Assembly: GCF_000340215.1 (NCBI RefSeq)
Contig: NW_006921553.1
Location: 1 to 64,000, forward strand
From: Pseudocercospora fijiensis CIRAD86
Taxonomy: Eukaryota > Ascomycota > Dothideomycetes > Mycosphaerellales > Mycosphaerellaceae
Length of the DNA stretch: 64,000 nt
Direction of reading: 5' to 3'
The first letter of the stretch is position 1, and each line of letters begins with the position of its first letter. Of this stretch, positions 9,823 to 48,900 are shown in pieces. The notes beneath the pieces were generated by a model that worked only from the letters and a program-made list of their open reading frames with translations, was not told the origin of the DNA and ran no database searches. The position numbers were made by a program, and so were the translations under genes.

Positions 9823-9825
9823 GTG

Positions 9826-18860: not shown

Positions 18861-19800
18861 CTGTACTTATAAAGCCTTAAATATATAGCGTTATATAGGC
18901 GGTAATAATAATAGCTTCGTAATTCTACTATATCGTTTAGTATCTTCTTCCCTAATAACTATAATAACTACTAGTACTATCGACGCTACTCGCCTTATTC
19001 TTTTTTTTTAAAATAGTAGTAGAGAAGCGCGCCGCGCGCTAAATAGAAGATTTAGCTTAAGGCTACGAGCCTATTTAAAAAAAGTATAAAACTAAGAAGA
19101 AGTTTTCTACGAAGAATAATTCTATAGAAGACTACGAGAGAAAAAAGAAAATATACGAGGATAGAAGATCGAAGGATAAGAGAAAAAAGGCGCGAAAGAA
19201 GGTATTCTATAGATAGCTTACGCCGATATAAAAGAGTTAGAAGAGGGCTTAGAGGAGGAAATATTTACGTGTAGGTTTCGAGCGTAGCTCTCTACTACTA
19301 TAAGTTAATATAGCCTATAGCTATAGTATTAGGGAAACCTAATTCGTAACTAGTTCGTAAGCTCCTCGGTAGCGCTACGTACCCGATTCGTAGGGCTTAG
19401 CGTACTATAAAAACTCTTTATTTACTCTCTCTTCTTTCTAGTTCTTTAGATATCACTATACAGAGAAACTTAACTACTACGTCGTACCTATATATAAGAA
19501 CCTAAGCAAGTAAAGTCTTCTATCCTACCTTAGTAAGCCTATATAACAATTATATAATGTTATTACGTACAATGCGGTACTGTCTCGCTAGCGCAAAGCC
19601 TGCTTAGCGTATACGCGGAAAAGCTCGGTCGCTTATACGGATATACTCGGTTGCCGGCTCGGTATATATACTATCCGTACGTAGCCTAGTTAATAGTAAA
19701 CGCTCTGCCCTATTCTAAGAAAGGCACGGTTTAGTTCTACTATCTACTACTAAGATTAGTAGAGGGTGTTCTATACGTTGCTATATACCTATTTTCTTAT
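18861..19800. other. No recognisable gene
   Basis: Purine-rich low-complexity DNA at 19010-19260, then the right arm of an inverted repeat, then sequence at 19530-19800 with slightly more CA/TG than its neighbours. I see no frame or RNA gene. Confidence 0.45.
19320..19530 (-). repeat. Right arm of the ~200-bp inverted repeat
   Basis: Reverse-complement partner of 16830-17040. Similarity weakens gradually at the outer edge, so the exact boundary and any target-site duplication are unclear. Confidence 0.75.
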
Positions 19801-19809
19801 AGTTCTAAA

Positions 19810-21250
19810 CCGTCTACCCTTCGTAGCGGCCTATAGAACCCCGAAAGATAAACGTAAGCGACCCGAATGCGCCGGGCGCGGAAACCGCGTAAAATAATAT
19901 ACTAGGAGCGCCGGTAGTATTAGAAAATTTTATATTAGTAAAGAATTCGGTTTCGACGTCGGCTAGAGCCTAGCGAGCTTCGTTATCGGCTAGTTTTTAG
20001 TCTCGGGCCTACTCTACGGTATTAAATATCGTAGTACCGGGGACTCCGTATACGATAGGCTCTACGTTAGCCCTACCGTAGAAATCCTTTCTAAATACGT
20101 ACGCTATACCCCCTATATCCTTATTCTTACGAACCTTAGTATACTAGTATTAGACTAGTAATATAAGGCGAAAGAGGACATTTCCGTTAACCTCCTAACC
20201 TTAAATACTCTTAGCTACCTTTCGGTATTCGGAGGGAATCTCCGGAGGCACTTCGAGTACGTATACGTAGTCTTCGTATATCTCGGCGGCTACTCGTACT
20301 AGGTAGGCTATACGTAAGAAATAGACGGCGAGGCGTAGTCTCGGCTTCGAATATAGGAAGCGGATATCGTTAGGTATATCCTCTACTATAAGATCGTCGA
20401 TAGTAAAGGTATTATCGGGTATAGCGAAAATATACTCGAGAACAGTCTTCGTCGGGACTAAATTATTCGAGTTACCCGGTAGCTAGTCTTCCTTAGGTAG
20501 GTCGTCGTTACCTTCGTATAAACTAAATAGGTTCTATATAATAATATTAGCGTTAACTAGAAGGGACATATAACTACGAGGACTAAACCGCTAACTATTT
20601 CGCCGGCTAGCAAAGTCTAACTTTAGTATAGCGGGTTTGCTAGCCGGTAAAATAGTTAGTATATTAGTCTAGGTATATAGTATAGGATAGAACTTACCTA
20701 ATATCTACCGTTATTCTAATACTACCGATCTACCGGCTACGATATAGCCTAAAGGAACCCTTTATATAGATCCTAATAAGGGAAGTTTAGGAATAAGAGA
20801 ATATATCTATTCTTCTCTAGACCGGACCCTAGGAAGCCGAGAAGGTATATACCGCAATCGGCCTAGACGGGAACTCGCGTACTATTTACTAGGAATATTC
20901 TAAGCGCCTCTCTTCTAGCTTTACGTATAGCCTCGTATAGTACCTACTTCTTATCCGTAGTTAGGCTAAACTATAGCGGTATAGTTACTACCTTAGGTAC
21001 CTTAGATACCTTAGGCTTAGGCTTAGGCTAGGTAGGTATACCCGGCGTAGGAGGAGTAGCTAGTATATTCTATATAGCCTTAGTACTCTTACCCTTAGTT
21101 CTCGTAGGGAGAGTTAGCGACGACTCGGTAGCGTTCGCGTTAGTAGTGACTATCTTCTTACGCTTCTTTAGCGTTACTAGGCTAGTCGGTACGAACTTCT
21201 CGTTTAGATTTATAATCGCCGTCGGTATATAGCGTACTAGCCGTTATTTA
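19810..21250 (-). pseudogene. Relic gene A (unrecognised), with one intron
   Basis: On the minus strand a frame runs from about 21250. The N-terminal part is basic and low-complexity (TLKKRKKIVTTNANATESS, PKPKPKVSKVPKVV). After an intron comes LFSLYEGNDDLP, then FTIDDLIVEDIPNDIRFLYS, RLAVYFLRIAYLVRVAAEIY, and a C-terminal part with VFRKDFYGRANVEPIVYGVP and FSNTAGAPSILFYAVSAPG, to about 19810. The intron starts with GTAAGT at 20697, contains the hairpin repeat at 20591-20659 and ends near 20533 or 20583. The product is about 420 residues and unknown to me. Its upstream module lies at 26345-26600, split from it by the LINE. Confidence 0.6.
20591..20659. repeat. Hairpin repeat inside the intron of gene A
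   Basis: Arms CTAACTATTTCGCCGGCTAG and CTAGCCGGTAAAATAGTTAG pair over about 24 bp across a 21-bp loop. Each arm also holds its own small palindrome (TTTGCTAGCCGG...). It sits between a GTAAGT 5' splice site and the likely 3' end of the intron. Confidence 0.85.
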
Positions 21251-21428
21251 CCGTTCGGACTAGCTAGAAGAGTAGCTCGTAGGTATAGATCGGTTTACCG
21301 GATAGAGAAAATAGGAGTATAGACTAGTTTACTAGATAGAGAAACGAGATAGAGGTAGGTAGACGGGGAAGGCGGTAGTAGTAGGAGTAGATTATAAAGT
21401 AGAAGAAGTTAGAGCGATAGTAGAAAGG

Positions 21429-21443
21429 TATATACTAGTATTA
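21429..21443. repeat. Target-site duplication, left of LINE copy 1
   Basis: TATATACTAGTATTA is repeated exactly at 26335-26349. This fixes the LINE boundaries and shows the site before insertion was continuous with the shared upstream module on the right. Confidence 0.9.
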
Positions 21444-21559
21444 TACGTTCTAAACGTAATTGGAAAAAATAGTAGCGAATAATTAGAGACGAAGGGAAGA
21501 CAGTTAAGAAGGAAGGGAGGACGAATAGAAAGCACTATATACTAGGGCAGAGGAGGTAC

Positions 21560-22560
21560 TAAAGGCGGAAGATAGAAGAACCCCTAAGAGGGCATATAGG
21601 ATAATAATCTTAGAACTCCTTAGAGGACTGAAAGCAATCTATAACTAGGCAAGCCACGTAATTACAAAGGTAGCTAATACAGTCGTAGTAAAGATTACGA
21701 AGAAACAATAGGAGACAAGCCTAAACTACCGTACCTAGGTAGCAGTAGCTAGTTAGGAGGCGCTAAAACCCCCGAGGACAGTAGTTAGAGTCTATATTAC
21801 GGACCTATAGGAGCAAAAGGAAATCTAAGGACTTATAGGGAAAGAGATTGTAGAAAGAATTATAGTTAAAGAGGTAATTAGGGCTAGGAACGAAGGTAAA
21901 GGGGTAATTAAGCTGTTTATAGCACAAGAGTAGGATAAAAAGAAGCTAGAAACATAAAAAGAATAGACAACTAAGATAGGGAAAACAGCAAAGGTCTCCT
22001 AATAGCAGTTTATAATTATAGCCTATAGTATAACGAGAAGCTTTAAGGAAGAACGGGATATTAAGAGCCTATAGAGACAAAACCAAGCTATATACCTAGG
22101 CCTAAAGATTATAAAAGTAGCATAGATTAAAAGGAAAATCGAAGAGACTAAGAAGCAGTCTTCCCTAATTATCTAGGTAGGGAGTGTAGAGTAAGCTAAT
22201 ATAGTACTAGACTAGGGGTTGTTCTAGGACTTTAAAAGATTAGAAACAGAGATACACAGAAGCAACTATAGGATAATGCAGTACTTTAAATGTTAACACT
22301 ATAGACACTTAGCAGCTAAGTATACAAAGACAACTAATACTTGCTCCTATTATATAGGGGATTACTAGGTTAAAGAATACAAAGCATATAAGGGAGAAGC
22401 AAGATATATATACTATACTAAAAGATACCCCTCTTAGGCGAAGGAATGCCCGGTAAGAATACAGGTAGCTAGGAAGGCAAAGGAAGCTAGAATCAACACA
22501 CTAAAAAGATATACAACAAGCTAGGGCAGCTAGGTATAGAAGCAACCTAGCTAAGTGCTA
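21560..22560 (+). pseudogene. LINE ORF1 with CCHC zinc knuckles
   Basis: Near 22275-22480 the frame reads QYFKC.HYRHLAAKYTK followed by TCSYYIGDY..KEYKAYKG and YTKRYPS.AKECPV. With RIP reversed in the mind (Tyr for Cys/His), this is a row of Cx2Cx4Hx4C knuckles as in Gag-like ORF1 proteins, which bind element RNA. The N-terminal part is Lys/Glu/Thr-rich. Stops at former Gln/Trp codons. The start is not certain. Confidence 0.75.
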
Positions 22561-22599
22561 CAAAAGAGGTCTAGGTAAGATAATAGGTTTATATTTAGG

Positions 22600-25500
22600 G
22601 CCTTACTAGCACAAGAGAGTTACTAGCAACTAGGGAGACTAAGATACCTTAACATTGTAGGAAAGGAAGCAGGGCAGACAAAGCTTAGTTAAATATTAGT
22701 CTAAAGTAAGGGAAGACTAAAGGAAAACTTATAGGGAAATAATATAGATGAAACCTAATAAACATTGCAACATTACTAAACATTATATAGTACAATGTCA
22801 ATAAGAGCAAAGATAAGGTATAGAGGAGCTTCCTTTAAGCACTAAACCTAAAAGAATATTACATTATTGCAATCTAAGAGCCCTAGCTCAACCTATACAT
22901 AAAGAGACTAGCAACAGTTAAAGACCTAAGATACTACCTAATTATCTACAACTAGGGAGCCTTAAGGACATACATCTATATTAGTAAGGAGATAGATATA
23001 GAAACCTAGTAGGCGATACTATAGGAGGATAGGGACCTAACATTAGTTTAAGTAGAGACATCCTAAGGTACACTCTAAGTCTACTATATATATAACCTAC
23101 TACTAGACTTAAGAAGCAGTACCTAACTAAAAACCTTAGAAAGACTACCTAGAGTTATCTAGAGGAATACCTACTAAATCCTACTTAGGGATTTCAACCT
23201 CTACTACCCCCTCTAGGGCTTAGACTTTACCCTAGCTTACTACTTCCTAGTAGGAAGACTAATTAACATATTAGAGAGGGAAGGAATAGAAATTGTTACC
23301 CTAAAGGGACTAATTACTTAGGAGGCAAGAGGAAGCAGTAGCACACTAGACCTATGCTTTATATTATATTAGATTAGGAATAGGATTATAAGATATAGGG
23401 TCAACTAGGAACTAGAAGAATTATTAGACTACTTCCTAGTACAGATTGAGCTAAATATCTAAGCTAATTAGGAAAGGGAACTAGAGGAGAAGCTTAACTA
23501 GAAAGGTACTAAATAGGGTAGGATTAGGGAGGAACTAGAAAGGGACCTAAAACTAGAGGAACTCTTAACAAAGTACCTACTAAGGCTAAAGGACATTAAC
23601 AAGGCAGTAGAAGAACTAATAGGAATCCTAAAATAGGTAGCTAGAAAGCATACCCTAGCAAAGAAACATTCACTATACTAGCAACTATACTAGACTAGTA
23701 AGTGTATAAGGAAGGTTAAAGTAGTAAGGAAGGCTAGGAGGCAGTAGATACAAACCTATACCTAGGAAGTATAGGACAACTACAATAAAGCCTACTAGGA
23801 AAAGAAGATCTAGATTAAGAAAGATAAGATACAAGAATAGAGATCTATAATAGGAATAATTACAAAGAAACTAGAGGAGATATAGAGGATAGCTAAATAG
23901 GTAAGGAGGCCTAAACAGGAAAAGAACATACTACTACAATTCCTAGACATTATAGACTAATAAGGACAAATGTAGACTATAATAGAAGGGAAAGTAAGAG
24001 CCCTAGGCTAATACTTCTTCTATAGAAAAGTATAAGTAGACCTATTAGATATAAAGGAGGAAGAACAAGAGACTCTACTACTAGGCATACTAAGAGACAT
24101 CTAGGTCAAACCCGAAACCATTAAAAGGATCCTAAAGAAAATTCTAGGCAACAAGGTACTAGGAGAAGACAAGATCTACAATAAACTTCTAAAAGTATAT
24201 AGGAAGGGGCTAGCCCTAGCACTAGCTAATATCTTTTTATAAAGCCTAGTACTAGGACACTACCTAAGACTATTTAGGAAGTCCCTAATAGTAGTGCTAA
24301 GGAAGCCCTAGAAGGAAGACTATACACAGCTTAAGGCCTATAGACTAATAGCCCTACTTAATATAATAGGCAAGGTGCTAGAGAAAATTATCGCTAAAAG
24401 GCTAATAACCTTTACCGAGGAAAGGAACATCCTTCCTAAAGGCTAGATAGGGGGAAGAAAGAAGAGGTTAACACTAACAGCTATAGAACTAATTATAGAA
24501 CAGATCAAGCATATCTAGCACTATAGTCAAAACTAGGTAGCAACCCTCCTCTCCCTTAATATCTTAGGAGCCTTTAACAATGTCTCCTATAAAAGACTCC
24601 TATATATACTTAAATAGAAAGCTATACTAAACTAGATAGTCCAATTTATCTAGTCCTTCCTATAGGAAAGATCGACATAGCTTATTCTAGGCAAATTCAA
24701 ATTAGACTTAATGCTAACTAAAAAGGGAATCCCCTAAGGATTAATACTCTCCCTAATCCTCTTCCTTATCTTTATAGTAGACCTACTCCTACTCCTAGAA
24801 TCAAAAAACACATCAGCATTAGGGTTTATAGATAATACAAACATCCTAGCCTAGTCTAAGACAATAGAAACCAACTACAAGATCCTAGAAGAGAAGTACT
24901 AGGAGTGTAAAAAATAGGTAAAGAGGCATAGAGCAAAATTCGCCCTAGAAAAGTACTAGCTTATCTACTTTAGTAAGGCTAAATCAACCTATAATATAAA
25001 GCAATTAATTACTATCTAAGGCTTTGAAACCCAACTATTAGTAGAGCTTAGGGTACTAGGGATCTAGCTAGATCTAAAACTGAATTAGGGACTATAAGTA
25101 AAGAAGGCAAAGCAGAGGGCAGATACTAATATACAATCTATTAATAGACTTATAGCCTCTATATAGGGGGCTATATTCGAGAAAGCTAAAGTTATATATA
25201 AAGCAATTGTTAAGCTAGCAATGCTATATAGAGCATAGATATAGACAGCCTAGGAGAAAACACTAAAGAGGATTAAGCAACTAGTTAACAGGTCCTAAAC
25301 TTAAAGCCTAAAGAAAATCCTAGGAGCATATAAAACTACACTAACAAGGGTAGTAGAAATAGAATTAGGGATCCTACTAGTTAAACAATACTTTAAGGGA
25401 CTAAGACACTAATATACGGCAAAGACAATAGAATACCTAGTCTAATAGACTATCTAAAAGGCACTAGACAAGATAAAAGCCTAGTATATTAGGACTAGGA

Positions 25501-26200
25501 GGCGAGACAGACTACAAATAACTCCCTAGAAAGTTAAAGACCTAGAGCAATATAGAGTCTTAACAAGAGAAATGCTAGAGAAAGAGCTTTAGGGACTAAA
25601 TATAAGGCTAAAGGAAGACAAGCTAAAGGGAGAGAAACAAAGCCTAGCAGAGTCTATTGCTAGACACCTATAGGAGTAGGAATAGAACAAAACACAAGTT
25701 AGACTAGGAACCCTAAAGGCACTAATTAAATTTGGTTAATACAACTACTAGCTCTATAAGGACCTAAATAGGGCCGAGGCAAGCCTAGCTATCTAAATTA
25801 GATCTAAACATATTAGACTTAGGTCTTACCTGTTTAGAAGAAACGTCCTAGGAATTAAAAGTAGAGCGTGCTAATATAGCTACTAATCTTAGAACCCTAA
25901 GTATATACTACTAGTCTGCCCTTAGTAGTTAGAAGGCAGAAGTAATTAGAGACTAAAAGCAATAGAAAGGGAATACGATAAGCTAATCTAGAGCAAAGAA
26001 GACCTAAAGAGGATAGTAAAGTAGATTATTAAACAGGGATTTATATAACAATTCGCACTAGTAAGGGAAACTAAGGAGTAGATAAGAAGGAGGGAAGAAG
26101 AGGGGGAAAGAAGGGTAGGGTAGTAGGCAAGGTAGTTAGAGGGTAACAACTATAATACTAGTATACCCTAAAGGAAGGAAAACAAGGAAACGAGGAAGAT
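22600..26200 (+). pseudogene. LINE ORF2: endonuclease and reverse transcriptase
   Basis: Endonuclease end: LRDFNLYYPLQG near 23190 (family GDFNxHHxxWG). RT part: KP.KEDYTQLKAYRLIALLN near 24305, then LNILGAFNNVSYKRLLYIL near 24560, KKGIP.GLILSLILFLIF near 24725, and the catalytic box as GFIDNTNILA near 24825 (family FxDDxN, second Asp now Asn). A motif with KFALEKYQLI(Y/H)FSKA follows. A Cys/His cluster near 25880 is the usual C-terminal knuckle. No RNase H seen. The element copies its RNA at nicked target DNA. Several RIP stops; inactive. Confidence 0.88.
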
Positions 26201-26334
26201 TAACACTTATAAATAGGATAGGAGGGAGGTTTTTACTAACTAAGTTAGTTTCCTACCTAAAACAATATATAGAAACAGACCTACATAGGCCGAAAGGTAC
26301 TACAATAGGCGAATGAAATATCTATCTATCTATC

Positions 26335-26349
26335 TATATACTAGTATTA
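26335..26349. repeat. Target-site duplication, right of LINE copy 1
   Basis: Exact copy of 21429-21443, following the ATCT-rich 3' tail of the LINE. Confidence 0.9.
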
Positions 26350-26600
26350 GCGCTTAAACCTCTAACCGTTTATATAGCGGGCCGCGTAGATAGCGTAAAT
26401 ATATAAAGCGGTTTACTTTACTAACGCGTATATAAAAGAGACGTTCCGAGCGATATAGCTAATTTATATAGTAAAGTTAGGACCGCCTTTCGTTCGGTAC
26501 GTTAGTTAAGGCCGATAGGTAAAGTCCGCTAAAACGCGCTAGTATAGGGTTTAGAACCTAATCTACGAGGAAGGAATAAAGTAAAGCCGAAGCGACGCCG
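26350..26600 (-). promoter_or_regulatory. Shared upstream module 1 (for gene A)
   Basis: One of four related modules (others at 33755-33990, 35660-35890, 36825-37440). Shared parts in order on the plus strand: GGTTTACTTTACTAACGCG, GCGATATAGCTAATTTATAT, CTTCGTTC-like (here TTTCGTTCGG), GTAAAGTCCGC and CGCTAGTATA. On the minus strand the second part reads CTATATAAATTAGC, a TATA-like site pointing at the relic gene to the left. The LINE separates this module from gene A. Confidence 0.65.
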
Positions 26601-27715
26601 TTACCTTACTAAGATCCTATACTAGACGGACCGCTTACGTCGCCTATATAATTTTATATAGCATATCGAAGTCGTATATCTTCGTCTACGATATAGGCGA
26701 GGTTGCGCGCAAAGTAGAGCCGTAGAAGATAGCCGAATAACGACGAAGCGGTATATAATAGTAACGTAATATATATATAGACTTTGCGTATACGGTAGAT
26801 ACAAGGCGTAGAAGGAAGTAAAGTAAAGTCTAACTAGAGTAGGCGTAGTAAGACGAAATATAACTAAGGTAATACTAACGACTTTACTAGCCGGAAAAGT
26901 AGTTAACCGTCGCCGCGAGAGTATATCTAGTTAAGACGGGTTAGTAACCGATAGAGTGCTTATTAGAGACGCTACCGTATAAACCCTTTTAACTATTTTT
27001 TCCCTAGCTAGTAAAATAGTTAGCGACTAATAAGAGGGGGTATCGTAGTAGAGATAGACCGATAGTATACTAAATCTAGGGGAGATAATAGCGGAATATA
27101 AGACCTAGCTTAGACGTATATCTATAGACGTGTCTTCTATTATACTCGCTAGTATAATCCTATAGACGGCGTATCTTATAGGCAAGATATAATAACTAGG
27201 TAGCGGGAAATATATAATATTAGTAGAGGCGGAAAGATAGGTAGATAAAATACCTAAGCGGTAAGGAAAGACTCTCTATCGTTACTATAGATACTCGGCG
27301 ATTGCATTACGCGTACGTAAAGTATAACAAAGGTATAGGCGGGTTAGATAATAGCGGTAGGGCCTCGCGGATAATAGTAGTTCGGAGTCGGTTATATAGA
27401 CTCTAAATCTACGCGTAATAGCTACTATAATTCGGTTATATTAATAGTATATATTACAAGTACCGACTAGGTAGACTATATATAGGTAGGAGGAAAAACT
27501 ATAGAAAAGACTAGAGATACGATAGGAAATTGCTCTACTTAATCGGCTAGTATTTAGTATATAGACTAGACTATTTATACGCGCGCCTAGTCGGTAACCT
27601 ATAGAACCTAACGCCTAGGATACGCGTACTTACTAGTCGTTCTATAGAGGCCTACTCGAGGAGATCTATATTACTATCTACTCTCTATATATAGAGCCTA
27701 TACGTATATACCTAC
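26600..27715. other. Coding-like but unresolved region left of the SNF2 relic
   Basis: Two minus-strand frames are partly readable between 27050 and 27650, e.g. RRFRVYITDSELLLSARPY, but I cannot choose between them. It also holds a hairpin-repeat pair at 26883-27018. It may be an extra small gene or the 3' region of the SNF2 relic. A 60-codon minus ATG frame at 26622-26804 looks like chance. Confidence 0.35.
26883..27018. repeat. Hairpin repeat pair, wide spacing
   Basis: GACTTTACTAGCCGGAAAAG near 26890 and CTAGCTAGTAAAATAGTTAG near 27000 are members of the hairpin family, with an unusually long loop of about 80 bp. Confidence 0.6.
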
Positions 27716-29419
27716 GCCTTACTCGGTATCCTCGGCGTCGCTACTCTCGACTAGTACTATAGACGAGGCGCTAGCCGCTAGCTTAACGCGCTTAGTATAA
27801 GCTAATATATCGTCGGCTAGGCGAGAATATAAAGCGACTAGTAGAGTAAGAGATCGCTTAGTTAAGTAACGAGCGCGTAGGGTTAGCTCGTCTATAGCGC
27901 TAGTATCTCTAATAGAGTCGCTAGAGTTAGGGCAAATAGGAGAGCCGGCCTAACTACCTAGTAAGTATAGCTATATACCTATACGGTTAGGTTCGTAGTT
28001 AGACGGCGTTCTAAGGGAGGGAGTAGCAACTCTATAGTTACTATTATTATTATAATTATCGAAGGGACTAGTAAAACTCTAAAATCTTCGAATAAGGGGC
28101 GTAAGAGTAGGAGCGTAGTAGCCGATATTTTATACGGCTCGGGTAAAATCGGCGTCGTAGTTAGAAGTACGCCGCTAAACGTACTTAAAATATACTATAA
28201 AGGGTATTAGCAATTCGACCGGTAACGGAGATAATAACTACTATACTAGATAGCGAAATAGATAATAACGTACGATACGACTTACTATACTAATTAGGAA
28301 TAATAGTAGAGTCGTATTAACCTATAGCGAGGGCCTTAGTAGCGAAATAGTAAAGATACTATATAAGTCGAATTAGACGGGTATCCTCGGTAACGTCGTT
28401 ATAGTATAGATATTACGCTATAGCGTACTTTAGATACTTATAGTCGCATCCTCCTATACGGTCTAGGTTACGCTTATCGGCCTAAAGGAAGTTATCTAGC
28501 GTAGGCTACTAGCGGTCGACGATAGTAGCGACCTCTCCCGCTATCGTACTACTAAGTAATAGGTAAAAGATAGCTTCGACTAGAACGAGATTCTTATAAG
28601 TTAAGTCAGAGATATAGCCCTACATAGTATCTAATATCTAGTAGCGAATGCCGTAGGACTTACGTATATAGGCGTCGGCTATATACTATCTAATATTAGT
28701 ATTAGCGTATTTACGGAATTAGATTATAGGGGGCGTACCGGTAGTACTATAGGCTCGTACGATCTCGTCTAACTAGATATAGTAGATCTCTTTATCTATA
28801 AGCCGGTCGGGTAATAAGACTACTATAGTAAGCCGCTCCTAAATATCGAAATAGAAGGTCTACTAGTAGCGCGAGTCGATAGTATCGACGAGGCTTAATT
28901 CGAATACTATAACGGCGTAAGTCTATTCTATATAAGTATAACGATTAACGATTGAGTTCTTCTTACTAAAGTCGACGATATCTACGATATACTATACGTA
29001 TATACCGTAATATAGATTAATAGACTCCGTATTAGTACGCGAGGATAGGATAATAGCCTAGGTTCGGGGATTATTATTAAAGGCATCCTCGGCGGTAGCG
29101 CGCTCGGCGTATATTATACCGGTATAGATAGTAGAGTATCGGATCTAATATAACTCTAATACGAGGTCGAGGAGTTAGTAATTAAGTAGCTCTTCGACCT
29201 AGAATACTACCTTAGACAAAAGCTAGATAATATATATATAGACGAGCTATAGTATCGCTAGGTACTTCGGAGATAGGCAGACTAGATAGACGAGTCGATC
29301 TATACGACGGCTTAGGGTAAGAAGGGGTATAGAGCCCTTTATATAGAACTAGAAGAAGTCCTATATTATTATCTAATATAAGGCGCTAGAGTTATATTAG
29401 CGAGAAAGTAGCGGCGGAC

Positions 29420-35560: not shown

Positions 35561-35569
35561 AACTATAGA

Positions 35570-36740: not shown

Positions 36741-36824
36741 TACCGGCCGGAGGAATAAATAGACGAGTATAGGTCGCTAGTAGTAGAAGTAGATTATAAA
36801 GTAGAGAGAGTTAGCGGCCGAGAA

Positions 36825-38740: not shown

Positions 38741-40095
38741 GAGATAGAGAAGATACGTATCTATAGCGAGGGATTATAGAGATAATAGGGGCCGAGAGGA
38801 GGTATAAATAGATCCTAGGCAAGTAGATAATAGACTAATCTAATACGCGTTATAACTACGGCGAGAGCGACTAAGTAGACCTAGAGTAGTATAGTACGCG
38901 GAAGGCGTACTAGCGAATTAGGATATAGTTTATAATAATATATACCTAGGGTCGTTCGATAGAAGTATATAAAGTAGTAGCTAGGTTAGTATATCGGTAC
39001 GCGGGGTTAAATAAAAAACAAGCGGATAAGGTTATCGAGGATATCTTATAGCTACCGGAGATAAAGAAAATTAAACGGCCGGACTATTCGACCGTAGGCA
39101 TAGAACTAAATATACTAAGATACGCGGGCTTTTATATATAGCCGGAGACAGTAAAGGATAGATTTAAGTACCTAGTCGTCGCCTGTCCCGAGCTTTTAGA
39201 GCTATATACTAAGGGCGATAGGACGTTAATTATAGATAATATATTCGTAAAACCGGATAGTAGTAGGCACTATATATATCTAGTAGGCTTTGTTATCGAT
39301 AGGATAGCGGTTACGATAGCGGTAATACGAATAGACTACCCGACTATAAATAGGTATTATCTAGCCGCGTAGTATATAAAGTTAATACTACTAGATACGT
39401 ATCTAGACGATTTGCTATTAATACTCTATACGACGACGACAACATTAATTAAAAGCGTATAGTAGGAGTACTTTTCCGACGCGATCCTATACTAGGCGAA
39501 ATAGTACCTAGACTACTTATTAATAGTAAATAGTATCCGATTACTACGCTAAGTAGTAGGGCTACCTATATAATAGGATTTAGTAGATCTTACCGTTAAG
39601 GTAATTCCGGTTCTAGAGGCGGCATACTATAAGCTACTAGACGCATATAGTATAGCTAACCTCGATAAAGTATTAGAGGAGGTAAAGGAGGTCCTAGAAC
39701 TTAAGTTTAGGAATAAAGATTTAATCGACTATATTCGCGACGAGTATATACCTTTGTTATTAGACGGGATATCTAACGCTAATCGAATAGTAAGTATAGT
39801 ATAGGAGGAAGGCTAGAGAATACGAGATAGTATACGTATCGGAGTAGCCGTATAGCTCGAGGCTATACGGGGCGGTATCTTAGAAATATTAGAGACGATA
39901 GATCTATTCTAGGCGGGGCAACTATAATATATCGATAGGCTCGAGTATATATAAGCCTATACTAAGCATGTTATACGTAATGCATTCGATGTATATATAC
40001 TACCGTCTCTAAGTAGATATAGTAGTTAAGTAATATAGACCGCCTCGTATTTCTCTAACCCGTTAAACTATAGGATAATAAATGCGACTATATAA
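38740..40095 (+). pseudogene. Relic gene E (unrecognised)
   Basis: A plus-strand frame of about 450 codons. It contains EVYKVVARLVYRYAGLNKKQ near 38965, RYAGFYI.PETVKDRFKYLV near 39130, TLIIDNIFVKPDSSRHYIYL near 39235, and a helical, Leu/Glu-rich part (ANLDKVLEEVKEVLELKFRN) near 39670, ending before the hairpin repeat at 40106. Most stops are at former Gln or Trp codons. No known motif; a helical scaffold or structural protein is possible. It is first in the plus-strand arm. Confidence 0.6.
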
Positions 40096-40105
40096 GAGTC
40101 CTAAC

Positions 40106-40165
40106 CGTTTTACTAGCTAGGAAAATAGACAATAGCCCGGTAGTTTGCTAGGCGGCAAAATAGTT
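40106..40165. repeat. Hairpin repeat after gene E
   Basis: Arms CCGTTTTACTAGCTAGGAAA and TTTGCTAGGCGGCAAAATAG. This copy lies between genes, not in a visible intron. Confidence 0.75.
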
Positions 40166-41089
40166 AGCATTATACTATTAATAATTTACTATATAATATA
40201 CGGTAGTAGAAGGAGGTAACCTATAAAACCTGCCCTAGAAAACGCCGTTAGTATATAGAGCGTAATACGTAAGTAAGCTAGACCCGAGGGTTAGTAACGA
40301 TTAGGGTAAATCTTAGCGGCGGTAAGGTTACTAATTTGCTCGGACTATCTCGGTTATAGTAGGTTTATATTCGAGTAGATAAATAATAAAAGATATCGTT
40401 AGATTAGGGCGTTATTGTCTAATCGATCGGGGAAGAAATTAGTTTTCGAGAATTGTAGTTATTCGAAAATATACTATAATTTCGGACGTATATCCCGGGT
40501 AGACGAACTAACTACTATCTATTCTACGATATTACGAGTTAATAGTTTTAAGAACCGAATACTAACCGAGTTAATCGTAGTATTTTATTACGTATATAAT
40601 AACTATATATAAACTAGTATATAGCCTAATAAGTCCGTATACGGGTCCGTTAGTATTATAAGGTAAGGATATATCGGATTGCCTCGATAATAGCCGGATT
40701 AGATAATAGTAGACTACTAGGTAAGTAAGAATATACTAGACTAAGATAGCTAAGGCGACGATAACGGCATAGATAGTATACCGGACGTCCTAATAGACGA
40801 TATGCGATAAAATCTAGTCGGCGAGGTATAATAGTCGAGCTATATCTAGGGATAGATAGCGCAATTAGGGTTCGAGCCTTAGTAGCGTTACTATACTACG
40901 ACCTATAGCTAGTAGACGTATCTACTATAACCGCAATTACAATACTAGAGTACTAACTATTTTACTAGCTAGCAAAAGTAATATAGATAATATAGTTTGC
41001 TACCTAGCAAACCGGTTCGTATCTAATCGTCGTTTAGTAGATTAGCCCTAGGTTATATAACGCCTAAGTCTCGTACGATAGAAGTACTA
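40166..41089. other. Intergenic region between genes E and F
   Basis: No gene I can support. A 65-codon ATG frame at 40415-40612 has no support from repeats or motifs. It contains a hairpin pair at 40955-41012 just upstream of gene F. Confidence 0.4.
40955..41012. repeat. Hairpin repeat upstream of gene F
   Basis: Arms CTAACTATTTTACTAGCTAG and GTTTGCTACCTAGCAAACCG. It may lie in a 5'-untranslated intron or in the promoter of gene F. Confidence 0.75.
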
Positions 41090-42880
41090 GATATAGAAAT
41101 TCCGGTAGCTCTATAACTATATACATTTACCTCCTATACGTAGCTAGCGATATTTAGTAGTACTACGGCGTAGTATCGACTATACTATATATATAAGCAG
41201 GTTAACGTATAAGATCTCTATAAATAGCTTATATCTAATAATACTCGATCTAGCCGACTCCTTTACTAATAGGTTCTAGTATTTTAATACAAGTATCGCG
41301 AGATAGGGAAAAACCGGTAGATTGTCTAGTAAGTATACCTACGTTAAGTTATATAGGGTATAATCCGACTTAACCGAGTATGTCCTCTACTAGCGAGATC
41401 TAACCTAACTACTAGAGGAGGCCTATAGTTAGTGCGATAGTATAGAAACTAAGCTAGTACGTCGATCGGTCGGGGTATTAGCGTACTCGCTAGAATAATA
41501 GATATAAAGCAGATACCGGTAGTAAGAAATAACCCGGGTAAGTAGTACTTTATTAGCTACCGTCGATAGTACGTATAAATACGAGGCGAGAGAGCTATAG
41601 TATTAGCGCTCGACCCCTAAGTAATAGTAGGGGCTAGAGGGAATATAAGAGATTACAATAGATAATATACGACGACGTACGAGAAGAGATTAAATTAAAC
41701 CTAACTTATATACGCGGATTTCAAATACGACGCCTAGATCGAAATATAGTATAGTATAACCGCGCTATTCGAGTATACTAGAGAGAGTACGTAGGCGAGT
41801 AGTATATTACAAAAGAAATAGTATACGATAAGTAGAGGCAAACGCGTAGGTACGGGCGGTACGGTAAAATTTAATCGAGTTTGTATACGGTTCTAGGAGG
41901 ACGTAAGATAGGATCGGCTATAATAATAGATAAAGTAGCAATATAGTAGGTAGTCTAATATATATAGCGAGGAAAGATATAAAAGGACGTCGGTTCTAGA
42001 GGTTGTCTATATTCTACCTTTATCCGATTTCGCCTACTAAACTACTCGAGCACGTCGCTATTCCGAAACTTCTCTCTACGGCTAGCCGTCGCGTAGATAC
42101 GAGTAAGACTACCGAGATAGCTAACTACTAAATGTTAGCGAGTTATACCGAGCCGGCGCTAGCGACCGGTAATATAGCCGAGTATTACGATAGAATATTA
42201 ATACGACGATAGTTATACGAGCGACCGCTACTACTACTATAGTATAACTAGGCGAGCTTCTTAGCAGAGAAGAAATAGTTATATTACGTAGAATATATAG
42301 CGTTTTTATTTATATAGGAAATATACTATTATAGGATAGAAATAGGGGAATAGCGACTAGATAAGTTAGCGACGTAGGCGCGGGTTAATAGGCCTAGCGA
42401 TTAGGTAGATAGTATACTAGTAGGTAGTAATATAATAGTAGATAAGAGTATAATAGAAGTTAACGAGAGAGTAATAGGTAGATTAAGTAAGGGTATAATA
42501 GAGGTTAATAAGAGAGGAATAGGCGGACTAGGCGAAGGCTACGATAAATAGGGAGTAAGCGGGAGGAGGAGTATAGATAAAGATTTATCGGCCGGCTAGG
42601 TAGTATAAGGGCGGATAATAAATAAGGAGTAGCTAAGTATAGAGGTACTAGAGGAATAGATCGTAGAGATAGTAGTAGAGATAATAAGTCTATAGGTAGA
42701 AGTACTCCGACGAAGAGCGACGATACTATTAGTATATTATCGTTAGTAGGTAAATATACGACGTAGGCGAAAGGCGACGAGAAGGCAGTTAGAGTAAGAA
42801 TAGAGAGAGTAGAATATATCGAGTAATAGTAGTTCGGTAGATAGATAGTTTATATTTTAGATCTCGACTAACTACGCTCT
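41090..42880 (+). pseudogene. Relic gene F (unrecognised)
   Basis: A plus-strand frame of nearly 600 codons. It reads LTYKISINSLYLIILDLADS near 41200, then TGRLSSKYTYVKLYRV.SDL near 41310, Arg/Gln-rich segments in the middle (LERVRRRVVYYKRNSIR near 41770), IFYLYPISPTKLLEHVAIPK near 42010, and an acidic/Met-Val-Glu-rich end (EE.IVEIVVEIISL.VEVLR, a possible coiled coil) near 42650. No recognisable domain. It is the second gene of the plus-strand arm; hairpin copies flank it. Confidence 0.55.
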
Positions 42881-43490
42881 ATCCGTATTTAACTTAAACG
42901 GTCTACCGATATAGGTAAATACTAGCTATAACTGTTTAGTTATATACTCTACTTCTAACGTCGGTAGATATCTTATACTATAGCGTACGAGCGTAGCGAC
43001 GCTATAGCGTTATTAATTTAATAAGGATACTAGTATAATAATATCGTTAGTAGATTAGAGACTATTACTCCCGCCTAACTACCGAGTTAATATAGCGATA
43101 ATATAGCTACGTGCTAACTATTTCGCTAAACGGAAAAGTAAATAGCACGACCGGTATATTATTGTTTTTTTTCTAGCTAGCGAAATAGTTAGCGTCTAGA
43201 ATTCCTACTCTATATAGTTGTTAGCGGGTACCGGATCTAGTTTAACGTTCCTAGCTAGAACGTACTCGATAGCGATAGCGTAGAGACGAACACCTTAGAT
43301 AGCCTTTTCTCTATCCTATATAGTACTCTAAGTTATCTACCCGAGGTATTCCTCTAGCGTTTAAAATTAGTGCTAGAATTTATCCTAGATCTAAGTAGGA
43401 CCTATCTATAGCGACTAGAACACGCCGATAGCGACTAGCTATATAATGTCTAGCCGTTAACAACTCCGTATTTGCTTGCTATATTCCTAG
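42881..43490. other. Intergenic region between genes F and G
   Basis: No gene seen. It holds the hairpin pair at 43113-43191, about 300 bp upstream of gene G. Confidence 0.45.
43113..43191. repeat. Hairpin repeat upstream of gene G
   Basis: Arms CTAACTATTTCGCTAAACGG and CTAGCTAGCGAAATAGTTAG with a loop of about 35 bp. Confidence 0.75.
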
Positions 43491-43494
43491 TATA

Positions 43495-46400
43495 TAGTAA
43501 AAGGGAAATAGTAGTAGAAGTAGGCATAGTATCTCTCGATCGGCTTAGCCTAAAGCGCTTGCCTCTTCTTCGTAACTACGAAGTTAGCGCGTAGGTATAA
43601 AGAGAATTAGTATATAGAGAGGCGGGGATTAACGAAGCGGTAGATAGTATATAGTTATTAGATAACGGCGAGGTTACAGTCGAACTGTATTATACTACTA
43701 GCTTCGTTTTACTAGATACGCTAGAAATAGGCGGTCTACCGACGGATCGCCTAAGCCTACGGCGTTTCGGGCTAGGTTAGAGGCGGTACTAGTCGGTATA
43801 TATATCGTTAGTAGAGCTCGTTACTATCGTCTAGGTTAGATATATATATTAGGCGGAATTAGGGACTATTAAGGTAATTAGATATAATTAGACGCAAACA
43901 TTTACCTACGCGAGTATATTGCTATATAGCTTGCCTCTCGCGCTACTATATATAACTAACGTTATCTACGTAAGGGTATTAATCGAAGCTAAGCTTACTC
44001 TAGTCGACTATTACTAGTATAGTTAGTTTAGTTAGTAGTAGGAGGTAAGATAGTACTAGCTTTCTATCTCGCCTAGCGCGACTAGACTATTATACGAATA
44101 ATATTAGTAAGGGTAGGAGGCCGACGTAGATAATAACCTAGATATATAGTATATCGAATCCTTTACCGAGTATAGGAGTAGCGACGAGAAATAGATTATT
44201 AGTACTATTAAGCTAGGCGTCGAGTAGCTATTCTTTCTCGCTAGCAGTTCTACTAGCGGTAGTAAAGTATAGGCAATCAATTTCCCTCGCTAGCTACTTA
44301 GCGTAGTCGAGACTATATACGAATACTAGGACGCGATCGCTAGGTATAAATATACTCGCCCTAGGCTACTTCCTAATAAGTCGTATAGCTATAAGTAGTA
44401 ACTATACCTACTAGTATAAGGAAATACGATATGTAATATTAGCGCGATTAGTACTCCGCCGTACTATTATAGGCTAGGCGATAACGTTACGCTATAGGAA
44501 TTTAGGTTCTATCGATAGTAGTAGAGTAGCGGTTAGGTAGACGACCTAGGTACTAATCGACCCGAGATAGCTAAATTAGCGAAAGATAGAGCGGTATAGT
44601 AACGCAGTTACGGCTAAATAGTACTCGTCGACGAAGATACAATCGAGCTAGTTCTAGACGCCGAGACGCCGTATATATATAATAAATTAGATAGAGTAGG
44701 CGGCCTTAGCGCTAACTAGGATAAGGGAAGCGAGGCGCTCTATTTCTAGTTACTATACTATATAGGACACTTTAGCGGCTTTAAGTCGGATAAGTATATT
44801 AACTCGTAGAGCAACTAGAGGAAGGATAAGTATAGTAGTCCGTATACCTTTTATATAGTAAGGAACTATAAAGAGGAGACTCTTACTAGCGCTAGTACCG
44901 AGGACGATAAGTAGTTAGGCCTCGAGGGAGAGGATCTATCGTATAGTAGTCGCTTAACCCTCGCTCTTCTACTATAGCTACGGGTTTTATATAATTTCGC
45001 GCGCGTACTATAGGGCTTTATCGAGAGTAAAAACAGGGGCGAGACTACTATTCTCGAGTACTAAGAGGTTGCTAATAGAGCTACCTAGCGACGGCTAGGT
45101 CCCCTAGTAGCGAGTAATAGCGGTAGGAAGCTAGAGGAAGTTCGACTAGATATAAGACGCGCGGTACCCGCCTTAGATTAAGCTATCCTATAAGTTAGAT
45201 AACGCGGCGAATAGATTAGCGTTAGTATATAAAATATTAGTAGTATAGAGACTATAGTTGCGCTACCTAGCTATAGCTACCTCTATATCGTTAACCTCGT
45301 TGTCTTCGTCGTCCGCGTCTAATTAATTAAAGCCTACGAACTTACTAAAGAATTTCTTAATAATAGCGACGGAGAAGTAACGCTACTCGCTAATACCGAA
45401 GGCAGGCAGGCTAGCGGCTATAGTCTGTCGATAAACGTATCGGATTATAGTATTATCCGACTAGACGAGGTTGTCCTTAGACTAGAGAAAAGGACTAAGT
45501 ACCTATCCGGGGTTAGATTAATACTAGTAGAGCTCGCGAAATAGTTAAATATATATAAGGTAATCGACAAGTAGGCGGCCGAGCTTTAATAGAAAGCGGA
45601 CGTTTTGTTTATTATTTAGCTTCTAGTAGAGCTTAGTATAGGTTAGGTAAATTATAACGCATCTATCTCGGATAGTAATAGAGCGGACCGACTAAGTATT
45701 ACGCTATATCGCCGAGAAGAATTCGGGTTCGCGGGCGGGCTAACCGCTACTAATAAATATAAGGACGCTAAGTAGCTAAAGGAACTCTTAGATATAATAC
45801 TTATACGCGCCGACTACCGAGCTAAGGTAGAGTGTATCTAAACCGGCCTCTAAGTATAAATACAATAGAGCCGGATTACTAGCGATAGCGTTAATAACGA
45901 ACGTCCGAGCTAGGTTAACGATAGTAGTATTACGCTTATTCTAGAGAAAGCTAAAGTAGACGGTAGTTTCTTCAAAGCAGTTATAAAGGTCGGTAAGGGG
46001 CATAGAGTTATACGGGAGTCCGAAAAGGAGGTCGCGCCGTAGGATCTTATACGCCTATCGATAGCAATACTCGAGTAGGGTAGTTAGGTCTATAACTCGT
46101 AGTACGACGTCCCTAAATTAAACAGATTTACCGTCGGCGGCCTAGATAGCCTAATTAGTCGATATATAGTTACTAGTAAAGGCGAAGAGGGCACTACGCT
46201 AGCGGACAATTTCTTAGATAGCGGTCTCTCGCGTAAAGAGTAACTCTATCTTATACTTAATAGCCTCTAAAACTTCGTCGTCGTAGTCGAAGCCCTAGTT
46301 ATAATACCGGGAATAGTTAAATACGAGGAGTTGCCCTATTTAAATAATAGCGGAGAGATAGTAATTAAAGTCGTTCGGTTCCCGCTATACGCCTAAATGC

Positions 46401-47825
46401 GGTTATACTATATAAAGGGCGAGGTAGCTAAGGAATAGGGAGTAGAACTAACGACTACTAATTAGGTACTAGAATAGAGAGAGTAATAACTAGGAAATAA
46501 GAGGATATAGTTCTAGTTCTTCTATCTTAGTAATACCGCTTCGGACGTAGTCGCTAAGTTTATTCTAGAGTTCGCGCTATTTGTCGGTCGGCGTTACTTA
46601 GGTAGAGCTATAGTCGACTTTTTCGTCGACTTTATCGCTTACTTAACTAGCGACTTTAGCGTCGACGTCGTCGTTAAGTTTATCGATAGGCGATATTATA
46701 GAAGGGAAAAATAGAACATTAGGGGAAATATAACGAATAAAATATACTAGCGCGTATAGTATAGCGTCGGCGTATTTAAGTTCGCTTAAGCGGGTCTTAT
46801 AGCGCCGAAAGCGAAAATGTTTATAATAGTCGGACTTCTATATTATATTATAAAAGTTAGCAAGGGCTTACTTACGGGAATTAGTAAGGTTAAAATAGAA
46901 GCTACTTTCGCTATAATGCCTTATCGTATAAGAGAACGCTCGGCGAGCGATAGCGATAACTTCTATAGTATAGGGCTTATTATCTTCTTTAGGGAGGTAG
47001 ATAGTAGCTTATATTTCGTCTTTATAGAGTAAGACGACGTAAAGGTCGATAAAGAGTTACTAAATCTAGAGAGGGAGGGTAGATACGTAGGCTAAGCTAT
47101 TATAAACGATATTTCGATCCTCGTCTAGTTTCTTCTAGATATCGGCCTAGGCTTTAATTAGGGCAGACGCAAATTAGTTATTATACGATAAGAAGGGAAT
47201 AGGTACTATACGAGCGCGACGATAGACCTAGAATAGGCGATTCTATCTAGGTTCGTACCTAGCTTTAGGGCAGAAGAATTACTATATATAGACATTGCTC
47301 TCCTATAGGCGATTAGGTATCTCTTATAGGTAGGCTTTTCTACTACTACCTCGAGTCTAGGTATTAGTCTACTTATATCGCGTTTTATAATACTCTTATA
47401 TTAAGGTACGCGAGTAAAAGACAGCTATATATTGTTCGCCCTATTCGTCGACGGTAGTATATTAGAAACAATCGAAGTAGAGCGGGAACTCTAGGGCTTA
47501 ATCGTCGGTCGGCTAGGGCTAAATTACCTAGTTAGGTATTATAGCAATATCGGGGAACGGCTTAAATTCTTCGATAAGAAGGCGACGGATAGTAATAGAA
47601 ATAGTATATTAGTATTAGCGGCTAAGGTAAGCGTAAAAATAGTAAGGGAGTACGGCGTATCGGCAAGTTTACGTACTTAATAATGCGATATTAAGGAAGA
47701 TAATAGAAGTAATCCTCGAAACGGTGTCTTTCCGGTATATAAGTCCCTAGGTATTAGGAGTAGTTCTTATAACCCTAATAATCTCGATCGTAATAATATA
47801 TTAATCGCGAGAGCGCGTTAACGGA
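43495..47825 (+). pseudogene. Relic gene G, giant single-frame protein (~1,440 codons)
   Basis: A single plus-strand frame runs the whole length, broken only by TAG/TAA at former Gln/Trp sites and without frameshift. A 71-codon piece at 46817-47032 is still free of stops. Segments in order: VEVGIVSLDRLSLKRLPLLR, VELYYTTSFVLLDTLEIGGL, a hydrophobic SILLYSLPLALLYITNVIYV, QVQLIKAYELTKEFLNN-like part near 45340, EEFGFAGGLTATNKYKDAK near 45715, then KVGKGHRVIRESEKEVAP near 45990, and GRLGLNYLVRYYSNIGERLK near 47505. I do not recognise it and see no catalytic signature. It may be a structural or scaffold protein. It is the last gene of the plus-strand arm. Confidence 0.7.
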
Positions 47826-48900
47826 CGTATATCTATCGCCTCCTTTATAGACTAAAGTAGTTAAGGCGCGGATTGTCTAACCTAAACCTTAATAGTATCT
47901 CTATAGAGGCCGTATCTACTATAAATAGTATATAGGAAAATAATAAGGCGAAGGTCGTATAGAATATAACTTAGTATAGCGTAGGTATAAACTAGTTAGA
48001 GATCCGGGTAGGCGGTTAGAATAGATAGTATATAGCTACGAGCTAATCGGCCTCGGGATAGTAGGGAGCTATATACGTATATATTACGGGCTTCTAAGCG
48101 AGGCGGTCGTAAGATTAAGTAAAAGGTATAAGATACAGACTACTTTACTAGCTAGAAAACGGGTTGATCTTTCGCTATATAGCAAAATAGTTAGTATTTA
48201 TATATATTAGGTATAGGGACGGTACGTAGTAGGAACGGAGTAATTAAAGTTTATATATATAGTAGCTAGCCTAACGTAGCGAGACGCTCTCTAATATTCG
48301 GTAGCAAAGTATAGGTAAAGTCTATCTACTATTTGCGGTAGTAGGCATAGTAGGCTTCTATCCCTTCTCTACGGCTAAGCCGGCGACATTATAAACGGAG
48401 CTCTAATCCTTCGTATATATTAAGAAAATTGGAAGCCGTATCTCCGTTTACGTTAAGAGGATTGTCCTAGGTACCTTTCCCTCCTTTGTCGTCTAATACC
48501 GGCAGATTAGGTTCTACGCTATCGTCTTCTAGCTATAAATCTAGTACTAGTGTATTACTACCCGCTTTAACCCTAGGTTTTCTTAGATGTTTTTTACGTA
48601 AGGCGCGTAATAGGTGTTTTTTCGGCGCTAGTAAATTGCGCCCCGTCTTAAAGCCTTAGAGAACGATATAGTCTTTAGGAATGTTAGGTAGGTAGGCCTA
48701 TATCGTACGTTCCTTACTAGGTTTCGGTTTATAAGCGTCTCTTATAGCGGTAATATTACTACCGGTAATAAAATTGTAAAGAGCGCTCTTCCTCTTATTA
48801 ACGCGACTATTCTAGGCTTCCGCGAGCCTCTTCCGTTTGCCTTATATCTAGAAGCGATAGGCTTCTTCGAGACTAAGTCTAATCCGAGTAGTAGCTATAA
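47826..48900. other. No convincing gene; end of island
   Basis: Frames become unreadable after gene G. A hairpin-family pair lies at 48140-48195. Beyond 48.25 kb CA/TG are slightly more frequent. The boundary between the island and the left part of the 10-kb repeat should be here. Confidence 0.4.
48140..48195. repeat. Hairpin repeat, last copy before the 10-kb repeat
   Basis: Arms GACTACTTTACTAGCTAGAA and TTCGCTATATAGCAAAATAG. No hairpin-family member is seen to the right of it, which supports the island ending near here. Confidence 0.7.

What the first reader, a model, noticed from the sequence alone, without database searches (positions are those of the whole stretch)
19800..48100. Two-armed island of large relic genes, possibly a degraded giant mobile element or virus-like insertion
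At least seven long relic frames lie in two divergent arms (minus: A, SNF2, C, D; plus: E, F, G). They share repeated upstream modules and a hairpin repeat family that stops at about 48.2 kb. Except for the SNF2 ATPase none is recognisable to me, and gene G is a single frame of about 1,440 codons. Such a compact set of large unknown proteins with one SNF2 enzyme suits a giant transposable element, an integrated large DNA virus (some nucleocytoviruses carry SNF2-like helicases) or a lineage-specific subtelomeric cluster. Introns speak somewhat against a virus. I cannot choose.
Basis: partly seen in the sequence, partly recalled or inferred. Interest (0 to 1): 0.85.

Follow-up and report, generated by a model that had tools for sequence, protein, structure and literature searches.

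The report
RIP-killed subtelomeric helicase gene repeat
The stretch is part of a very large block of helicase-type genes that a fungus copied, facing the same way, onto many of its chromosome ends, and whose copies it then destroyed with its own mutation machinery against repeats; it resembles the helicase repeats known from other fungal chromosome ends but is larger and carries more kinds of helicase.

Summary
The island is most of one copy of a RIP-mutated subtelomeric repeat; not a virus, probably no transposon. The core (window 19921-49815) recurs in about 50 copies (51 long matches). Of 38 on contigs of at least 0.8 Mb, 33 lie within 200 kb of a contig end, all 33 facing the same way; 37 of 51 keep the full gene order tested. 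A 12-kb tail follows, ending in CCCTAACCCTAA (99 such ends). 'Gene G' was read on the wrong strand: its minus strand is a RecQ-type helicase relic (RECQ5, E 1.9e-5 in the C7 copy), so the repeat belongs with telomere-linked helicase repeats. The tail holds a ZNFX1-type helicase relic (E 2.9e-21); the minus arm holds two SNF2-like paralogues (Walker A strong, whole-domain score nil). Gene A is most likely the 5' part of the second. Two LINEs interrupt the arm. In 17 sampled copies (700 bp) 166 of 168 variable columns are transitions, none gapped: nearly identical copies were hit by RIP. Inferred mechanism: recombination between chromosome ends, as for yeast Y', then RIP. Novel point: three helicase types in one unit.

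The parts
1..9838 (+). tail module of the neighbouring, telomere-ward unit (same as 52196-61529)
   Evidence: pieces 93.6-96.4% identical; same terminus at 9798-9830
9839..19920 (.). RIP-mutated DNA not matching the unit copies; holds GATTAG/GATTAA hexamer tracts; stands where the first ~9.4 kb of the core would be
19921..49815 (+). core of the subtelomeric unit (first ~9.4 kb missing here), with two LINE insertions; the finding's island lies inside it
   Evidence: matches the C5a, C5b, C7 and C4 copies at 92-96%; common end at GGATCTAG within two bases in the four other copies read
   Evidence: equals C4 10498-12013, which continues in C4 into the paralogue of the first SNF2-like gene
21443..26336 (+). 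LINE insertion, not part of the unit
   Evidence: RVT_1 E 1.7e-17; absent from C5a; TATC tail
26358..26540 (-). repeated upstream module before the second SNF2-like gene
   Evidence: families D2/D4
28221..33838 (-). first SNF2-like relic gene, with a LINE copy inside
   Evidence: Walker A near 31386, best of 59692 windows, 17.3 against a null maximum of 8.2; only structure matched by the C part is HELLS, E 0.95; 42 of 65 scored own-genome matches at 77% identity or more, all with stops
31428..32913 (+). 5'-truncated LINE insertion
   Evidence: same 3' end as 21443-26336, absent from C5a
   Evidence: modules; 34746-34970 against the RIP-adapted host RecQ piece E 0.001, reversed control 0.11; E 2.7e-6 against the SNF2-like gene, but unrelated frame pairs reach 6e-6
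38920..39999 (.). relic frame E, family and strand open
   Evidence: 49 own-genome matches; stop counts
43900..46339 (-).
   Evidence: Helicase_C E 8.7e-4, 20 bits, below the cut-off of 23.5; RECQ5 E 1.9e-5 over the equivalent of 44060-44938 in the C7 copy; all 12 structures matched by the window copy are helicases, RecQ and BLM first, E 0.11 and more; host RecQ, RIP-adapted, E 2e-4 at 44417-44914
   Evidence: 79 own-genome matches; stop counts
49810..61532 (+). tail module following the core
   Evidence: joined at 49810/49815 in the window, C7 and C4 (in the last two with an insertion between); lacking at C5a
59738..60601 (-). ZNFX1-type helicase relic in the tail (matched stretch)
   Evidence: PF25396 E 5.6e-15 at 60302-60601; ZNFX1 structure E 2.9e-21 at 59738-60529
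61493..61525 (+). terminus of the tail with CCCTAACCCTAA
   Evidence: 99 matches genome-wide with up to 3 mismatches, control 0

Best explanation
A giant telomere-linked helicase repeat of a filamentous ascomycete, working like the yeast Y' element. A block with a RecQ-type gene, two SNF2-like genes and further large genes (core, about 32 kb in the C4 copy without its insertion), often followed by a tail with a ZNFX1-type gene, lies next to telomeres. Ectopic recombination or break-induced replication between chromosome ends copied it from end to end; uniform orientation, head-to-tail joins and telomere-type motifs at the tail terminus are the traces (shown). RIP then hit the repeated DNA in sexual cycles and left stops in every copy examined (shown). 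LINEs and a histone-bearing hAT-like element inserted as well. Copying primed in telomere repeats, and any help from the encoded helicases, are inferred.
For: Copies. Of 51 long G copies, 38 lie on contigs of at least 0.8 Mb; 33 are within 200 kb of an end and 33 of 33 face the same way; at 250 kb 34 of 34, at 300 kb 35 of 35, on 23 of 36 ends at 250 kb. Tail termini: 99; 84 on such contigs, 77 within 250 kb of an end, 76 of 77 the same way, on 28 of 36 ends. Real telomeres at the starts of C4, C1 and C15; in C15 the telomere sits inside the first SNF2-like relic, in C4 inside the unit's start. Head-to-tail joins read in C7 and C6; in C5 core joins core directly. RIP: 166 of 168 variable columns are two-letter transitions, no gap column, in 17 copies over 700 bp; 17-23 stops in 233 codons of the RecQ frame in each of the 17. 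RecQ-type relic, ZNFX1-type relic, two SNF2-like paralogues, E 7e-61, with SNF2-type Walker A.
Against: Three long core copies are internal (C1 7.82 Mb; C6 2.89 and 2.93 Mb), as are 7 tail termini; one near-end tail terminus (C18) faces the other way. Core and tail are not always together (99 termini against 51 long core copies; C5a lacks the tail). Only two tail-to-core joins were read. Of 21 contig ends looked at (14, six by their first 60-300 bases, and the window start), only three show telomere arrays and two begin with N, so contig end is not always chromosome end. The genome-wide RecQ profile search put none of its 35 matches in a unit, although only 36 of 120 candidates were scored. 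The SNF2-like genes score nothing with a whole-domain profile, while artificially RIP-mutated host SNF2 genes keep 217-463 bits.
Confidence: 0.88

Rival explanations
1. A giant transposable element (Starship-like or other) that targets chromosome ends and moves as a unit with its own enzyme.
For: The core has a fixed end at GGATCTAG that joins different neighbours; large gene set; three internal copies.
Against: No DUF3435 in any unit though a RIP-mutated one elsewhere is found at E 5.7e-32; no duplication seen at the core end in five copies read; one orientation and tandem arrays; helicases rather than a recombinase are what was identified.
Confidence: 0.09
2. An integrated large DNA virus that multiplied in the genome.
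For: Several large genes without a recognised family (searches found no relative).
Against: No viral hallmark in the frames scanned; subtelomeric tandem copies facing one way; RecQ- and ZNFX1-type genes fit fungal chromosome ends; missing relatives are expected for RIP-mutated, masked queries.
Confidence: 0.02
3. Membership of its SNF2-like part in the Stagonospora nodorum repeat X3X3R8: an endogenous cluster of tandem Rad5/SNF2-like helicases with a reversed arm holding a ubiquitin-conjugating enzyme, RIP-mutated in a related fungus; here fused with a telomere-linked RecQ repeat such as S. nodorum X26.
For: Tandem SNF2-like genes, RIP-mutated (PMC3017866 passages and part of section 6).
Against: No ubiquitin-conjugating domain: best 8.4 bits among 594 chunks with a RIP-adapted profile (reversed control 5.0), against 46-89 bits for artificially RIP-mutated host pieces; none of 32 genome matches lies in a unit. 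The reversed arm is in doubt, since G is on the minus strand too. No X3 sequence was at hand.
Confidence: 0.3

Closest known systems
Telomere-linked RecQ helicase (TLH) repeats of fungi, e.g. S. nodorum X26 (PMC3017866 passages), Z. tritici subtelomeric RecQ genes (PMC4522978 passages)
   Same: RecQ-type gene at many chromosome ends; RIP-mutated in S. nodorum X26.
   Different: Here a core of about 32 kb with two SNF2-like genes and more, and a tail with a ZNFX1-type gene.
Y' element of Saccharomyces cerevisiae (recalled; mentioned in PMC4522978 passages)
   Same: Subtelomeric, tandem, one orientation, helicase gene, telomere-type repeats at joins (recalled).
   Different: Y' is about 5-7 kb (recalled); here no sequence comparison was made and all copies examined carry stops.
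X3X3R8 of Stagonospora nodorum (PMC3017866)
   Same: RIP-mutated tandem SNF2-like helicase genes.
   Different: No ubiquitin-conjugating enzyme found here; reversed arm doubtful; in S. nodorum genes in six of nine copies are held to be possibly functional, here no intact copy was found.
Subtelomeric amplification and RIP of a DNA methyltransferase gene in Zymoseptoria tritici (PMC4522978 passage, PMC6710886 abstract)
   Same: Gene copied among chromosome ends, then all copies killed by RIP.
   Different: Here a multi-gene unit of tens of kilobases.
hAT element with captured histone H3 of Pseudocercospora fijiensis and relatives (PMC6710886 abstract and passages)
   Same: The 9.9-kb insertion in the C4 copy and the repeat at 64393 onward have a core-histone hit, inverted repeats and an apparent 8-bp duplication.
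   Different: An insertion and neighbour, not part of the unit; it is a clue to the clade.

Membership tests
RIP-mutated repeat | C-to-T transitions preferring CpA, in repeated DNA | tested here: met
   CA and TG almost absent outside the LINE stretches; 166 of 168 variable columns transitions
Telomere-linked RecQ helicase repeat (TLH) | RecQ-type helicase gene in the unit | tested here: met
   C7 copy RECQ5 E 1.9e-5, window copy best E 0.11, Helicase_C 20 bits below cut-off 23.5, host RecQ RIP-adapted E 2e-4 against 0.11 reversed. Against: none of the 35 matches is in a unit, but 84 of 120 candidates were not scored
Telomere-linked RecQ helicase repeat (TLH) | Linked to telomeres | tested here: met
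   33 of 33 near-end G copies in one orientation; real telomere arrays at three unit-bearing contig starts
Y'-like subtelomeric element | Head-to-tail tandems with telomere-type repeats between units | tested here: met
   joins in C7 and C6; motif at 99 tail termini; only two tail-to-core joins read; in C5 core joins core without it
Y' element proper | Sequence homology to the Y' helicase | not tested
   no Y' sequence compared
Starship | DUF3435 captain at one end | tested here: not met
   DUF3435 at two places only, none in a unit
Starship / DNA transposon | Target-site duplication at the element ends | tested here: inconclusive
   none seen at the core end in five copies read; no empty site available
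X3X3R8 | Tandem SNF2-like helicase genes | tested here: met
X3X3R8 | Reversed arm | tested here: inconclusive
   G is on the same strand as the SNF2-like genes; strand of E and H open
X3X3R8 | Ubiquitin-conjugating enzyme | tested here: not met
X3X3R8 | Protein homology to the S. nodorum genes | not testable with these tools
   no such sequence at hand; protein searches found no relative
SNF2 family ATPase | SNF2-type Walker A | tested here: met
   17.3 and 16.6, next 10.8 in the unit, null maximum 8.2 in 202184 windows
SNF2 family ATPase | Whole SNF2 domain by profile | tested here: not met
   no domain above zero bits with native or RIP-adapted profile; Pfam 12.3 bits against 24.9; motifs II, III, V, VI do not stand out at the expected places
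ZNFX1-type helicase | ZNFX1 domain and helicase core | tested here: met
   55.7 bits, cut-off 27; ZNFX1 structure E 2.9e-21
Nucleocytoplasmic large DNA virus | Hallmark genes (major capsid, B-family polymerase, packaging ATPase) | tested here: inconclusive
   none in the Pfam scans made; RIP lowers sensitivity

The most novel reading that the evidence does not exclude
A giant, multi-helicase, telomere-associated selfish unit: RecQ-, SNF2-like and ZNFX1-type enzymes encoded by one unit promoted its own spread between chromosome ends by telomere-primed recombination, a filamentous-fungal counterpart of Y' assembled from parts known singly elsewhere, with RIP as the force that ended it.
Probability: 0.25. 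Interest if true: 0.75.

Novelty: new variant of a known kind. Interest (0 to 1): 0.45.

Why it matters
It shows a gene block of tens of kilobases copied to many chromosome ends and killed wholesale by RIP. Because sampled copies differ almost only by RIP transitions, they record RIP's preferences (CpA saturated, CpG partial) and set a limit on how long ago copying went on. It joins RecQ-, SNF2-like and ZNFX1-type genes in one telomere-linked unit, where other fungi are reported with RecQ or SNF2-like repeats apart, which makes the question why helicase genes sit at fungal chromosome ends easier to test.

Tried and rejected
Virus and Starship readings: see rivals. Ubiquitin-conjugating domain: not found. 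Introner-like elements for the hairpins: considered because one hairpin lies within the SNF2-like C part; the palindrome was found only with unit copies; role open. Rfam: no match in 19900-61600. SNF2 by whole-domain profile, also RIP-adapted: no score. SNF2 by blast against eight RIP-adapted host genes: best E 0.001 lies in the LINE, next 0.003 in the second SNF2-like gene, reversed control 0.15; against five more, best 0.028 while the reversed control reached 0.009. A first motif-chain script lacked the motif V block and used a wrong spacing for motif VI; only the per-motif result is relied on. Searches among 5.8 billion proteins: nothing for the SNF2-like C part, plus-frame G or minus-frame G (about 8000 candidates scored each). 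Structures by sequence: plus-frame G and a second minus frame none up to E 10, the long minus frame none up to E 1. Frame H: E 1.2e-4 to a designed protein (Kelch-type by recall) with no stretch passing alone and DUF7289 below cut-off; not taken as identification. Pfam STAR_dimer E 0.02, below cut-off, ignored. Structure prediction was not run: it would have needed stops read as amino acids.


Full report
What was asked. A two-armed island of relic genes at 19.8-48.1 kb, thought to be a giant element, a virus or a subtelomeric cluster.

The island is a repeat. The window is the start of contig C22 (365,469 bp) of a 73.9-Mb assembly in 30 contigs. BLAST against fetched stretches of C5 and C7 and C4 shows collinear copies, 92-96% identical. 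The core ends at GGATCTAG in the window and in four other copies read; the next bases differ in all five, though those of C4 and C7 lead into the same inserted repeat. In the window the tail follows at once; in C7 and C4 it follows after that insertion; at C5a the minisatellite start of another core follows, at C5b the inside of one. The tail ends at window 9838 and 61532 with CCCTAACCCTAA. In C7 the next core start follows within a few bases, in the internal C6 pair after some 250 bp. C4 begins with a real telomere; from there come the core start (about 1.1 kb), the second SNF2-like gene (6.7-12.0 kb), the first (13.9-18.5 kb) and the core end (43132, with a 9.9-kb insertion).

Where the copies lie. 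The masked C part of the first SNF2-like relic gave 65 matches from 65 scored of 175 candidates: 42 at 77% identity or more, 23 at 28-44%, all with stops. The G stretch gave 63 matches, E 49, H 79, all with stops in the frame searched; no intact relative was found. Of the 63 G matches, the 12 shorter ones were dropped before counting positions; of 51, 38 lie on contigs of at least 0.8 Mb and 33 of these within 200 kb of an end, all 33 in one orientation; two more lie at 202 and 265 kb in that orientation, three are internal. Gene order: of 51, 51 have H, 45 E, 37 the first SNF2-like gene in the expected order and strand, 37 all three. Tail termini: 99 matches, 0 in the reversed control; 84 on large contigs, 77 within 250 kb of an end, 76 of 77 in one orientation, on 28 of 36 ends, 7 internal. 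Telomere arrays were seen at three of 21 contig ends looked at.

RIP and age. CpA and TpG are nearly gone in the window outside the LINE stretches. Seventeen copies of 700 bp (five in hand, 12 fetched, of 51) align without a gap; 168 columns vary, 166 by a two-letter transition, 102 of 165 with counted context at CpG; pairwise identity 0.887-0.973. In the RecQ frame each of the 17 has 17-23 stops in 233 codons, and 17 of 26 stop columns are shared by all. So at most about two of 700 columns hold a non-RIP change over the whole set: the copies were close to identical when RIP acted, and no sampled pair looks newly made. Shared stops do not show RIP before copying, because CpA sites are saturated.

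What it encoded. (a) RecQ-type. Completing the six-frame Pfam scan gave Helicase_C on the minus strand of the G stretch (E 8.7e-4, 20 bits, below the cut-off of 23.5). The masked stretch 43900-45079 of the window matches 12 structures up to E 10, all helicases, RecQ and BLM first, none below E 0.11. The C7 copy matches RECQ5 at E 1.9e-5 over residues 48-340, then BLM and RecQ. A host RecQ piece, artificially RIP-mutated, hits 44417-44914 minus best among all frames of 26337-61532 (E 2e-4; reversed control 0.11; unmutated 2.3 elsewhere). Controls: the plus frame of G and another minus frame match no structure. (b) ZNFX1-type, in the tail: Pfam 55.7 bits, ZNFX1 structure E 2.9e-21. (c) SNF2-like: two genes are paralogues (E 7e-61; shuffled controls not below 9e-5), with Walker A stretches GAILADDTGTSKTISILYA and GAILADNVGTSKTITVLYA, the two best of 59,692 windows (17.3, 16.6; third 10.8), against 8.2 at best in 202,184 windows of other RIP-mutated DNA. 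The C part matches one structure only, the SNF2 enzyme HELLS, at E 0.95. Against: a SNF2 profile gives no score while artificially RIP-mutated host SNF2 genes keep 217-463 bits, and the other motifs do not stand out at the expected places. I call them SNF2-like, probable but not proven. E, F, H and D are unidentified. Pfam saw all six frames of 26337-31427, 32914-37400, 37001-43200 and 43000-48200, both strands of 50000-61532, but only minus frames of 19500-21442 and one frame of H per copy.

All three identified kinds run on the minus strand, that is toward the telomere; the picture of two divergent arms is not supported for G and open for E and H.

Insertions. 21443-26336 and 31428-32913 are LINE copies with a common 3' end, TATC tails and duplicated target sites, RT E 1.7e-17. 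The 9.9-kb insertion in C4, with a copy at 64393 onward, has a core-histone hit (E 2.1e-19), inverted repeats and an apparent 8-bp duplication, as published for P. fijiensis and relatives (PMC6710886: abstract and passages).

How it works, and the literature. Shown: location, orientation, joins, RIP. Inferred: copying by recombination between ends. RIP-mutated subtelomeric RecQ (X26) and tandem SNF2-like repeats (X3X3R8) are reported from S. nodorum (PMC3017866: passages and part 2 of section 6), subtelomeric RecQ genes and a RIP-killed methyltransferase family from Z. tritici (PMC4522978: passages). The main text of the P. fijiensis genome paper has no 'telomer', 'subtelomer', 'helicase' or 'SNF2' (PMC4981457, term counts only). 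My ten paper searches listed no description of this unit; the library lacks most subscription papers. PMC9453070, PMC8381367 and PMC4739733 were seen as passages.

Verdict. A large RIP-killed, telomere-linked helicase repeat with three kinds of helicase gene; a new variant of a known kind. The species is inferred, not given.

Noticed in passing
window 21443-26336 and 31428-32913; C7 4565986-4567758: The LINE copies are short of CpG and TpG but keep CpA on the coding strand (three copies share this; differences among them are mostly C/T before A), a strand-biased pattern unlike the rest of the window; one-strand RIP of the source element or editing of first-strand cDNA are both open.
   Followed up: partly
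C22 64393-71842 (L024) and C4 31004-40922: 9.9-kb element with inverted repeats and a core-histone relic (E 2.1e-19), like the published histone-H3 hAT of Pseudocercospora; a clue to the genome's identity.
   Followed up: partly
window 15587-15682 and 16231-16611: Hexamer arrays GATTAG/GATTAA that could be decayed telomere repeats, beside an inverted self-similar stretch 15286-15992.
   Followed up: no
genome-wide, e.g. C8:3265251, C2:5560123, C11:406552: Fifteen RecQ-profile matches with four or more stops at internal sites, possibly Helitron or old helicase copies.
   Followed up: no
C15:1-420 and C4:1-330: Telomere repeats sit directly inside the unit (in C15 inside the first SNF2-like relic, close to a hairpin), as after breakage and healing.
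   Followed up: partly
window 61493-61525 and 98 other places: The tail terminus is little mutated: 42 of 99 are identical and TG is kept in most, unlike its surroundings.
   Followed up: no
C17:423076-424444 and C3:5543119-5544141: One RIP-mutated and one stop-free DUF3435 (Starship captain) gene in the genome.
   Followed up: no
20594-48191, e.g. 29433-29497: Palindromic hairpins (two arms around a loop) repeated within the core and found only with it; function unknown.
   Followed up: partly
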